This document shows, piece by piece, positions 32,703 to 63,253 of a stretch of 64,000 bases of DNA. Made by a program: the position numbers and the translations under genes. The stretch lies in NCBI RefSeq assembly GCF_030846775.1, contig NZ_CP132910.1, forward strand, positions 1,212,001-1,276,000. Reading direction: 5' to 3'. Numbering within the stretch: the first letter of the stretch is position 1; every line of letters begins with the position of its first letter. A model generated the notes under the pieces. It ran no database searches and was not told the DNA's origin. It worked only from the letters and a program-made list of their open reading frames with translations. The stretch is from Geothrix sp. 21YS21S-2. Lineage in GTDB: Bacteria > Acidobacteriota > Holophagae > Holophagales > Holophagaceae.

Positions 32703-33338
32703 TCAAAGATCGCCAAGTTCCAGGAAGACATCCTTCCAGCCCTGGGGCAGGGCCGCGGCGTCCCGCTCGATGGTCGCGGCGTCGCCCCGGACGAAGGGGC
32801 CGGTGCGGCCCGCGGCGCCGTGGGCCTCCACGTTGCGCAGCGTGGCCTCGGCCAGGGGGGCCAGGCCCCGTCCCGGCAGCGCCACGCCCTGGCGCGCCAG
32901 CAGTTCCCGGGCGCCGAGCCACAGGGTGGCGGCGTGACCCGAGGCCAGGACCGCGCACGCGTGGTACAGGGGCTTGAGGTCCGCGGGCAGGACGAAGGGC
33001 GAGAAGCCCAGGTCCGTGAAGGCCGCCACGAGGCCTACCGGGACGTCGCCGGTGAGGGCCAGGGGGGTGCCCCGCCAGTCGGCGGCGGCGCCGCCGAAGC
33101 TGGTGAGGGGGTGCGCGCTGGGGACGCCGTCCAGGTGCAGGCTCCCCGAAAGATGGACGCAGCGGCCGGGGAACTGCCGGGCCAGGGCTTCCACGGCCCC
33201 GTCGGGGACCGCCAGCAGCACCGGGCCCTCGGGCCTCGCGGTGCCCGGCAGCAGCGCCACCCGGTCCCCCCAGGCCTCCGCCAGGGCCCGACCCGCGCGC
33301 CCCCGGCCGAGGATGGTGAAGGATGTCCAGGCTTCCAT
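32703..33338 (-). CDS. Rossmann-like/DUF2520 domain protein
   Basis: A 211-residue protein of the family pairing an N-terminal Rossmann fold (FTILGRGRAGRALAEAW, a GxGxxG dinucleotide loop) with a C-terminal DUF2520 helical domain (LKPLYHACAVLASGHAATLW is its signature). It resembles ProC/ketopantoate-reductase-type enzymes in layout, but the reaction is unknown. The ATG at 33338 is taken because the Rossmann strand begins straight after it. It is the first gene of the reverse-strand chain leading to rnhB and mutT, and its start is 27 bases from the divergent gene on the other strand. Confidence 0.88.
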   Translation of the reverse strand: MEAWTSFTILGRGRAGRALAEAWGDRVALLPGTARPEGPVLLAVPDGAVEALARQFPGRCVHLSGSLHLDGVPSAHPLTSFGGAAADWRGTPLALTGDVPVGLVAAFTDLGFSPFVLPADLKPLYHACAVLASGHAATLWLGARELLARQGVALPGRGLAPLAEATLRNVEAHGAAGRTGPFVRGDAATIERDAAALPQGWKDVFLELGDL

Positions 33339-33365
33339 GCCCCTAGAGTATCCCAATGGCCGCCA

Positions 33366-34082
33366 ATGGCAGAGAATGGTCCGGTGACCTGGCCCCTTCC
33401 CCCCGACATGCCCTGGCCCCAGTTCCTCCGGCGCCTTCGGCACCCCGCCCCTCCCCCCGGGTGGCTCGAGGCGGCCGCGGAGCTGGACGAGGTGCGCCGG
33501 CGGCCCCTCCTGCTGCGGTGGATCGCCCAGCACCCCCGCATCGGCGCCCACCTGCGGGCGCGCCTGCTGCCCACCCTCCCCTGGCGGGCGCTGGCCAGCA
33601 TCGCCCAGGACGCCTCGGCCCACCCCCAGGCCCGCCAGCATGCCACGGAGCGCCTCAACGCCCTGTGGCCCGGCCTCACCATGGGCGAGCGCCGCAGCCT
33701 GGCCATGGCCGCGCCCCGGCAACTGTGGCCGCAGATCTGGCGTAACCGCGACCGCCGCGTGCTGGAGGCCTTCCTGCAGCACCCGCGGCTGGGCGCGGAG
33801 AACCTGGAGGCCCTGATCCAGCCTCCCCTCACCGCCCCCCAGGCCGAGGCGCTGCAGGCCTCACGGTGGCTGGAGATGGTGCCGGTGGCCCATCAGGTGC
33901 TGGTGGCCCTGGACCGGGGGCTGGAGAACCCGGACTCGGGGCTGGTCCTCGGCATGGCGTCGCCCTGGATCAAGGCCTTGCCGGAGGAGGAGCGGCTGCT
34001 GGTCGCCGCGCGCATGGTCAATCCGGCCCTTCGCCGCATGGTGCGCGCCTGGGCTTCGCCGCGGCTGGAGGAGCAGGACTAA
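33366..34082 (+). CDS. helical protein of unknown function
   Basis: A 238-residue protein that I do not recognise. It is almost wholly alpha-helical, rich in Leu, Ala, Arg and Trp, with repeated units of about 25 residues such as LLLRWIAQHPRIGAHLRARL, RVLEAFLQHPRLGAENLEAL and MVNPALRRMVRAWASPRLEE. The HPRLG/HPRIG pairs suggest short HEAT-like or leucine-rich-variant repeats. There is no signal peptide, membrane helix or catalytic motif. The ATG at 33366 lies 27 bases from the divergent DUF2520 gene; a later ATG at 33408 is possible. It ends 46 bases before a long palindrome that may stop its transcription. Confidence 0.7.
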   Translation: MAENGPVTWPLPPDMPWPQFLRRLRHPAPPPGWLEAAAELDEVRRRPLLLRWIAQHPRIGAHLRARLLPTLPWRALASIAQDASAHPQARQHATERLNALWPGLTMGERRSLAMAAPRQLWPQIWRNRDRRVLEAFLQHPRLGAENLEALIQPPLTAPQAEALQASRWLEMVPVAHQVLVALDRGLENPDSGLVLGMASPWIKALPEEERLLVAARMVNPALRRMVRAWASPRLEEQD

Positions 34083-34128
34083 GTGGTAACAAAACCATTG
34101 TTTGTCGCCGGGGATTGGTGGGCTTTAT

Positions 34129-34203
34129 CTCCTTCATCCCAACCAGTCGGGTAGGCCGGGGGCGCAAGCTCCCCGGCCTACCCGACTGATTGCGATGAAC
34201 GAG
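34129..34203. repeat. long palindrome between convergent genes
   Basis: Arms 34129-34161 and 34171-34203 pair over 33 bases with three mismatches; the inner 17 bases (AGTCGGGTAGGCCGGGG) are perfect, with loop GCGCAAGCT. It lies between the unknown helical-protein gene and convergent elbB and can act as a bidirectional terminator-like hairpin. The complement of 34145-34187 contains a 34-base block identical to 61150-61183, the 3' end of the group II intron. Confidence 0.88.
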
Positions 34204-61111: not shown

Positions 61112-61190
61112 ACAGGGCTGAAATTCTCATTTTCCTTTATCCCCTTTATAGTCGGGTAGGCCGGGGAGCTTGCGCCCCCGGCCCCCCTCA

Positions 61191-61223
61191 GATCCGGACG
61201 TGCGGGACTACCGCATCCGGCTC
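61191..61223 (-). ncRNA. group II intron domain V
   Basis: On the reverse strand GAGCCGGATGCGGTAGTCCC and CGCACGTCCGGATC form the 34-base catalytic hairpin; the stem GAGCCGGA.../...TCCGGATC with the bulge and apical CGG/CCG pairs matches bacterial domain V. Confidence 0.88.
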
Positions 61224-61227
61224 CTCG

Positions 61228-62556
61228 TCACGGTCGCTGAGGACGTAGTTTCGATGCGTAACTGATGGCTGGGGCCAGTGGGAACCGAGCCAGAAGCTTG
61301 TTCATGCGATCCCAGGTCATGCGGGCCCGCTGGGACCTCCGGTTGAGCCATCCACGCCACCTTCGCCCAACTTCATAGCGGAAGTGCGCCAGGGCCCTGG
61401 AGTTCCCCGTGATCCCGTAATACCTGAAGTGACCGACCAGTTTCTGGTTGATCGTCCGCCATTGCTCGCGCACCGGGAGGTGGCGGTGTTTGGCCATCCA
61501 CTCCCCGATCTTCGTGAGCGCCCGACTCATCCGGCTCTTCGCGGTCTTCCGCTTCACCACCCACCGGCCGTTCTTGGCCGTGGCCCAGTAGTGGGTGAAT
61601 CCCAGGAAGTCGAAGTGGCCTGGTCCCCCATTGGGGTCCCTGGGCTCCCTCGGCTTCCAGAACTCCACCAGCCGGGTCTTATCCGGGTGGATCGTCAGGC
61701 CATACCGCTCGAACCGCTTGGGCAGGACTTCCATAACCCGCTTGGCATCCTCCTCCTGGGCAAAGCCCATCACGAAGTCGTCCGCGTAGCGCACCAGGAA
61801 GGCCCGACCCCGGAGTCGGGGCTTGACCTCCCTTTCAAACCACACGTCCAGCACCTCGTGGAGGTAGATGTTGGCGAGCATCGGACTGACCACCCCGCCC
61901 TGGGGCGAGCCGGTTTCCGGGTGCGTGATGCATCCTTTCTCCAGCACGCCCGCGTTGAGCCATTTGCCGATCAGGCGCCTCAGAACGCCGTCCTTCATCC
62001 GCAGGTCAAGGATTTCCCGCAGCTTCCCGTGGTCCAAAGTATCGAAATACTTACGGATATCCACGTCAAGCACCCAGCCTCCCCCCATGTCCATCAACCC
62101 CTGCCAAATCGCCTCCAGCGCCATGTGCGCGGAGCGCCCGGGCCTGAACCCGTAGGAGCAGTCCAGGAAGTCCTGCTCATAGAGCGGTTCCATCACCATC
62201 ACCACGGCCCTTTGCAGGACCTTGTCTTCGAAGGCGGGAATGCCCAGGGGGCGTTGGCTGCCATCCCCTTTCGGGATGTAGGTTCTCCGGACTGGAGGGG
62301 CCTTGTAGGTGTCGCCGTTCTTAGCCCGGTTCAGGAGGCTCTGGAGGTTGGACTCCAGGTTTTCCCCGTATTCCTTGCCCGTCACGCCGTCCACCCCGGT
62401 CGCCCCATCCTTGCGGGTGCGCCCGAAGGCTTCCTTCATCCAGTCCAGGTCCATGTGGTAGGCCAAGGAGGTGAAAGCCACCTCCGGGTGGATCCTGGCC
62501 AGTTCTGCGATCCGTTGTTGTTTCGTGGAGACGCTGTTGGATGTCATTGCACCCAT
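61228..62556 (-). CDS. ltrA: group II intron reverse transcriptase/maturase
   Basis: A 442-residue intron-encoded protein that splices and retro-transcribes the intron. The reverse transcriptase domain covers about residues 40-330, with IPKGDGSQRPLGIP (RT1-2), the catalytic YADD (257-260), and SPQGGVVSPMLANIYLHEVL (RT4). The maturase (X) domain follows (WRTINQKLVGHFRYYGITGN; LAHFRYEVGRRWRGWLNRRS). No C-terminal HNH endonuclease is present, as in class C introns. ATG 62556 has AGGGA about seven bases upstream; in-frame codons further upstream lie in the ribozyme and are not part of the family. The frame is intact, so the intron may be mobile. Confidence 0.95.
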   Translation of the reverse strand: MGAMTSNSVSTKQQRIAELARIHPEVAFTSLAYHMDLDWMKEAFGRTRKDGATGVDGVTGKEYGENLESNLQSLLNRAKNGDTYKAPPVRRTYIPKGDGSQRPLGIPAFEDKVLQRAVVMVMEPLYEQDFLDCSYGFRPGRSAHMALEAIWQGLMDMGGGWVLDVDIRKYFDTLDHGKLREILDLRMKDGVLRRLIGKWLNAGVLEKGCITHPETGSPQGGVVSPMLANIYLHEVLDVWFEREVKPRLRGRAFLVRYADDFVMGFAQEEDAKRVMEVLPKRFERYGLTIHPDKTRLVEFWKPREPRDPNGGPGHFDFLGFTHYWATAKNGRWVVKRKTAKSRMSRALTKIGEWMAKHRHLPVREQWRTINQKLVGHFRYYGITGNSRALAHFRYEVGRRWRGWLNRRSQRARMTWDRMNKLLARFPLAPAISYASKLRPQRP

Positions 62557-63147
62557 TATCTTTCCCTTCAACGGTTCCGTGATCCGGCAGCTCCTTGGCT
62601 CCAGCGGGTCCCGGCGGCCCGGTTCCCCGCGATCATCGCTACTATGAGCTGCTCCGACTTCCGGCCACCCCTCCCGCGCTCCTTCGTTTCCTTCAGTTTG
62701 CGGTACCGCCCTGTGCCGGCTGTTCGCTCCCGCCGGGGGCGGCACCCCCCGGCGAGCCTGGGTTCGTTTTACGTGGCTTCCCTCACCACTGGGTTGTTGG
62801 CGGAGATGGCTGGATCTCCCAGGTTCCTGGGGAACCCCTGTGCACGTGCCCTGCTCTATGACCCCGGTGGGACCCTACGGTCAGGCCCTTGCGACCTTCG
62901 GGTGCTGTCTTCCGATCGGAGAACGGCGTCGACTCCCACGGTTGGATGCTTTCGGGGCTCCATCACACGGCCCATGCACTCCCTGTCTACGCTTCACGAG
63001 GTCGGTCGCCCTTCCCCACGCAAGACTCGGTTCCGGCTGCTGGCCAGCTTTGCCGGGCGGGGCTTGCTGCCTCCCCGCTGGGCTCCATTGCGAGGTTTCA
63101 GTCTGTCTTAGGTCATCCATCCTCCTCGCCCAGGCTTGGCCTGGCGC

Positions 63148-63221
63148 ACTCCCCGTCCATCCCCGTTCATCGCCGGCAAATTCAGCGTTTAATTAGCCGG
63201 GCATGAACGGGGATGGACGGG
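63148..63221. terminator. hairpin at the 5' exon of the group II intron, behind yicC
   Basis: Arms 63148-63175 and 63194-63221 are 28-base inverted repeats with two mismatches around an 18-base AT-rich loop. It lies 32 bases past the yicC stop, in the place of its terminator, and the intron begins at its outer edge. Each arm contains the tandem-like TCCCCGTCCATCCCCGTTCAT. Confidence 0.85.
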
Positions 63222-63253
63222 GATGGGTGAGGATGAAAAAAATCTTTAGCCCC

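What the first reader, a model, noticed from the sequence alone, without database searches (positions are those of the whole stretch)
34129..34203. Stand-alone palindrome sharing 34 identical bases with the group II intron end
The complement of 34145-34187 contains the same 34 bases as 61150-61183 (domain VI region of the intron), but here the second arm completes a perfect 17-bp stem that the intron lacks, and the palindrome extends to 33-bp arms. It may be a repeat family from which the intron took its end, an intron-derived relic, or a small element mobilised by the intron machinery. Both this palindrome and the one at the intron 5' exon carry CGATGAACG with GGATGG.
Basis: partly seen in the sequence, partly recalled or inferred. 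Interest (0 to 1): 0.65.

Follow-up and report, generated by a model that had tools for sequence, protein, structure and literature searches.

The report
Palindromic scar of a group II intron
[quoted passage not shown] similar scars occur in five other Acidobacteria.

Summary
The palindrome at 34145-34187 shares 34 bases with the 3' end of the group II intron at 61151-63149 (33 intron bases plus the conserved first exon base, T). The chromosome has twelve copies of that 3' end (eleven full-length and near-identical, one truncated) but only one stand-alone palindrome, so it is not a repeat family. It is best read as an intron relic. The introns insert into REP-like palindromes that hold two mirror-image target sites. 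In an unoccupied paralogue these sites flank a 113-bp interior hairpin; in the window copy that interior is missing and the domain VI palindrome lies exactly between the two sites. Five other Acidobacteriota carry the same kind of palindrome at unrelated loci. Each matches the domain VI of an intron of its own genome or family (30-34 of 33-34 bases), and both flanks start with the same base, matching the intron's first exon base wherever that is known. How the end was mirrored is inferred: either 3' ends joined at both mirror sites and then collapsed, or one domain VI cDNA snapped back. Intron fragments are known; I found no description of palindromised domain VI scars in the library searched.

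The parts
34145..34187 (.). Stand-alone domain VI palindrome (17-bp perfect stem; GCAA loop on the + strand)
34154..34187 (+). 34 bases identical to the intron 3' end (33 intron bases + exon base T)
34083..34141 (+). Left outer arm of the target repeat, 48/59 identical to unoccupied repeat L034
34190..34213 (+). Right outer arm of the target repeat, 20/24 identical to L034
34221..34901 (-). elbB (isoprenoid biosynthesis glyoxalase), convergent neighbour
32820..34082 (+). ORF of unknown function ending at 34082, convergent neighbour (true start uncertain)
61151..63149 (-). Full-length 1999-nt group II intron, source type of the palindrome
61151..61225 (-). Intron domains V and VI (Rfam RF00029)
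61228..62745 (-). Intron-encoded reverse transcriptase/maturase
63150..63236 (-). 5' exon side of the intron: REP-like target palindrome, ends GATGGACGGGGA at the intron

Best explanation
The palindrome is a scar of the resident group II intron. Shown: the intron inserts after GATGAACGGGGA or GATGGACGGGGA and before T in REP-like palindromes; unoccupied repeats hold two mirror-image sites around a 112-113 bp interior hairpin; in the window copy that interior is missing and is replaced by domain VI with its 3' arm mirrored, with both junctions at the |T insertion points; the same kind of object recurs at other loci in five other Acidobacteriota, each resembling the domain VI of an intron of its own genome or family. 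Inferred: intron 3' ends became joined to the outer arms at both mirror sites (two head-to-head insertions or two abortive reverse-splicing events), and the stretch between them collapsed at the GGCCGGGG word that domain VI shares with its own reverse complement, leaving only the tips. The perfect hairpin between convergent genes may since act as a bidirectional transcription stop (speculative).
For: Single palindrome against 12 intron 3' ends in the genome. 33/33 match to the own intron including the loop, next best intron 29/33. Flanks match the outer arms of unoccupied repeat L034 with identical spacing to the intron sites. Simulated collapse of two head-to-head introns at GGCCGGGG gives exactly the 43 observed bases. 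Parallel cases: G450 32/34 and G447 31/34 with own introns as best match, G019 34/34 with a family intron, G005 32/33, G004 30/34. The first flank base is the same on both sides in 6 of 6 and equals the intron exon +1 base where known.
Against: No intact head-to-head intron pair was seen. All 12 introns sit on the strand predicted to be the lagging-strand template, so a second insertion on the opposite strand should be rare. The source intron was not found in G004, G005 or G019 themselves (draft genomes). The flanks of the other five palindromes were not traced to unoccupied repeats.
Confidence: 0.6

Rival explanations
1. Intron relic made from a single insertion: during target-primed reverse transcription (or later replication) the cDNA of domain VI folded back on itself, copied its own 3' arm into a perfect palindrome, then rejoined the left arm of the repeat through the similarity of the two arms.
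For: Needs only one intron. Fold-back points fit all variants (G019 keeps GG opposite TA, G004 keeps the A.C mismatch of domain VI). [quoted passage not shown] a group II intron RT switches template to exon DNA (PMC3280974). G447 flanks share 6 bases. A 248-bp truncated intron shows incomplete insertions occur here.
Against: In the window copy the left flank is the natural left arm, not a copy of the right arm (they differ at the third base), and the 5' exon interior that a single insertion should leave is absent.
Confidence: 0.3
2. Ordinary bidirectional intrinsic terminator or REP hairpin whose likeness to domain VI is chance or convergence.
For: Lies between convergent genes; hairpins with given 9-10 bp arms occur at background rate (controls); similar-looking hairpins exist in unrelated phyla without matching introns.
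Against: 33/33 identity with the own intron's domain VI including the loop, repeated with the local intron in other genomes; no T tract; single copy.
Confidence: 0.06
3. A small non-autonomous palindromic element mobilised in trans by the intron machinery, or the repeat from which the intron acquired its domain VI.
For: Occurs at different loci in related genomes, with an intron-like 3' end next to exon-like flanks.
Against: Never more than one copy per genome seen in this lineage. Lacks domain V and everything needed for reverse splicing. The left flank is an inverted 3'-exon-type arm, not the 5' exon an inserted element would have.
Confidence: 0.04

Closest known systems
Truncated or fragmented group II introns of bacteria (PMC4424553, PMC4496777)
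   Same: Non-functional remnants of a resident intron in its target sites; a 248-bp 5'-truncated copy is also present here (L016).
   Different: Known fragments are colinear truncations; here only domain VI remains and its 3' arm is mirrored into a perfect palindrome.
Group IIC introns at intrinsic terminators and attC sites (PMC4424553)
   Same: Insertion next to or in DNA hairpins, intergenic location.
   Different: The target here is a REP-like repeat with two mirror sites; the RT class was not determined.
RmInt1-type endonuclease-minus introns (PMC8914252)
   Same: Strong bias for the template of lagging-strand synthesis.
   Different: RmInt1 homes to an IS element site; no palindromic scars were found described.
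REP / BIME elements
   Same: Intergenic hairpin; the surrounding outer arms belong to a REP-like family of this genome.
   Different: The domain VI palindrome itself is single-copy.

Membership tests
Group II intron (the palindrome itself) | Domain V with catalytic triad next to domain VI | tested here: not met
   Rfam scan finds domain V only at 61151-61225, not near 34145
Group II intron (61151-63149) | GUGYG 5' end, domains V-VI, 3' AY end, RT/maturase ORF | tested here: met
   GTGCG..GAC ends, RF02005 and RF00029, TIGR04416 above cut-off
Group II intron relic | Sequence identity to a resident intron at an intron target site | tested here: met
   33/33 identity and junctions at both |T sites of the repeat
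Repetitive palindrome family (REP-like) | Many copies of the palindrome in the genome | tested here: not met
   One stand-alone copy
Intrinsic terminator | GC-rich hairpin followed by a T tract | tested here: not met
   Hairpin -58.8 kcal/mol but no T tract on either side and not picked by the scan; T-less termination not testable here
Group IIC (class C) intron | RT phylogeny in class C and insertion at a hairpin motif | tested here: inconclusive
   Hairpin targets seen; best structural relatives are a class C RT but also LtrA; no tree was made

The most novel reading that the evidence does not exclude
Group II introns that target palindromic repeats repeatedly generate 'domain VI palindromes' through mirrored or snap-back joining of their 3' ends, a distinct product of intron mobility that swaps the interior of the target hairpin for an intron-derived hairpin and may leave a working bidirectional terminator between convergent genes.
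Probability: 0.35. Interest if true: 0.6.

Novelty: new variant of a known kind. Interest (0 to 1): 0.45.

Why it matters
Intron remnants are normally thought of as colinear truncations. A mirrored domain VI scar recurring in six Acidobacteriota points to a bilateral or snap-back outcome of reverse splicing that could be reproduced in the laboratory. It also gives a signature for finding past intron insertions after the intron has gone, and suggests how an intron could replace the hairpin it targeted.

Tried and rejected
(1) A widespread repeat family: the scan of 84,980 species for GTCGGGTAGG..CCTACCCGAC gave 28 loci in many phyla, but outside Acidobacteriota the interiors do not match local introns, several look like ordinary terminators (Clostridia, Actinomyces), and reversed-pattern controls show such hairpins at background rate; these are not claimed. 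Hits in viral contigs looked unrelated. (2) An orthologous empty site at elbB: in no congener did the sequence beside elbB match the window's (one contig ends there); the paralogue L034 was used instead. (3) Palindromes from the other intron type of G002 (GTCGAGTAG..CTACTCGAC): none in 77 family genomes. (4) Simple snap-back for the window copy: disfavoured but kept as a rival. (6) Ten library searches found no paper describing domain VI palindromes; most subscription papers are not held.

Full report
Window 34145-34187 reads AGTCGGGTAGGCCGGGG-GCGCAAGCT-CCCCGGCCTACCCGACT, a perfect 17-bp stem that folds at -58.8 kcal/mol with its surroundings, z = -12. Bases 34154-34187 equal the complement of 61150-61183 over 34 positions. 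The intron's own domain VI lacks the second perfect arm and has the branch-site A unpaired. The 34th base is the exon's first base: all twelve intron 3' ends in the genome read CCTACCCGAC followed by T.

The genome is one 5.25-Mb contig. AGTCGGGTAGGCCGGGG occurs 14 times: 12 intron 3' ends and the two arms of this palindrome. A 131-base query and a palindrome pattern found no second stand-alone copy. Eleven introns are full length, ten of them 1999 nt with 0-1 differences and one of 2001 nt; the twelfth is a 5'-truncated copy of the last 248 bases, 92% identical. They encode a group II RT/maturase, and the window copy matches two Rfam intron models.

The introns insert in REP-like palindromes of the form CATCCCCGTTCATCCCCGGC-loop-GCCGGGGATGAACGGGGA|TGGACGGGGATGAAGG, so each repeat holds two inverted target sites. 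Two unoccupied repeats make the geometry clear: in L034 and L064 the two |T sites enclose 113 and 112 bp that fold at -67 and -84 kcal/mol. The flanks of the window palindrome match the outer arms of L034 (48/59 on the left, 20/24 on the right), with the same spacing to the |T points. The interior hairpin is absent and the domain VI palindrome sits in its place.

Other genomes carry the same kind of object. Among 77 genomes of the family, stand-alone palindromes with these ends occur in G000, G004 and G005, and a variant keeping the intron's GG opposite TA occurs in G019 (L092). Another lies in G326/G450 of a different family and one in a Thermoanaerobaculales genome, G447. The three palindromes inside the genus lie next to different genes in each genome. 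Those of G000, G004, G005 and G019 appear to lie between convergent genes. Interiors track the local intron: best matches are own introns for G000 (33/33), G450 (32/34) and G447 (31/34), and introns of family members for G019 (34/34), G005 (32/33) and G004 (30/34). The first flank base is identical on both sides in all six and equals the intron's exon +1 base where known. Similar-looking hairpins in other phyla do not match local introns and are not claimed: a given pair of 9-10 bp arms also turns up by chance or in terminators (controls).

Mechanism, inferred. Joining intron 3' ends to both mirror sites and deleting between them at GGCCGGGG, a word shared by domain VI and its reverse complement, gives exactly the observed 43 bases. 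[quoted passage not shown] For the window copy, the natural left arm, the missing 5' exon and the exact double junction favour bilateral joining. The strand bias (12/12 introns on the strand predicted by sampled GC skew to be the lagging-strand template, as known for RmInt1, PMC8914252) and the absence of intact head-to-head pairs count against it. I put the relic reading at about 0.9 overall, bilateral joining at about 0.6 and snap-back at about 0.3.

Function today is unknown. The hairpin lies between elbB and an upstream convergent ORF and could stop transcription from both sides, but it has no T tract.

Noticed in passing
G000 introns at 1.27-4.85 Mb (window copy 61151-63149): All 12 intron copies lie on the strand predicted by sampled GC skew to be the lagging-strand template (6 minus below 2.94 Mb, 6 plus above 3.8 Mb; origin near 3.3 Mb), and ten full-length copies differ by 0-1 bases, a very recent burst.
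   Followed up: partly
L016 (G000 C1:4143390-4143640): A 5'-truncated copy of the last 248 bases of the intron, 92% identical, whose 3' exon matches the repeat subtype of the window palindrome.
   Followed up: partly
L122, L126, L133 (Roseiflexus MAG): Three near-identical 37-bp palindromes with the same 10-bp ends at different loci in a genome with no detected group II intron; an unrelated repeat.
   Followed up: no
L129, L140, L142 (Conexibacter, Streptomyces altiplanensis, an actinomycete MAG): Perfect 42-bp palindromes with the same ends, 19-bp stems and GNRA-type loops but no matching domain VI found; scars of unsampled introns or coincidence.
   Followed up: partly
G000 C1:699313, 424350, 1080445, 4306524, 539490: Five Y1 transposase (PF01797) matches, four with an interrupted frame; could relate to the REP-like target repeats or to IS200.
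   Followed up: no
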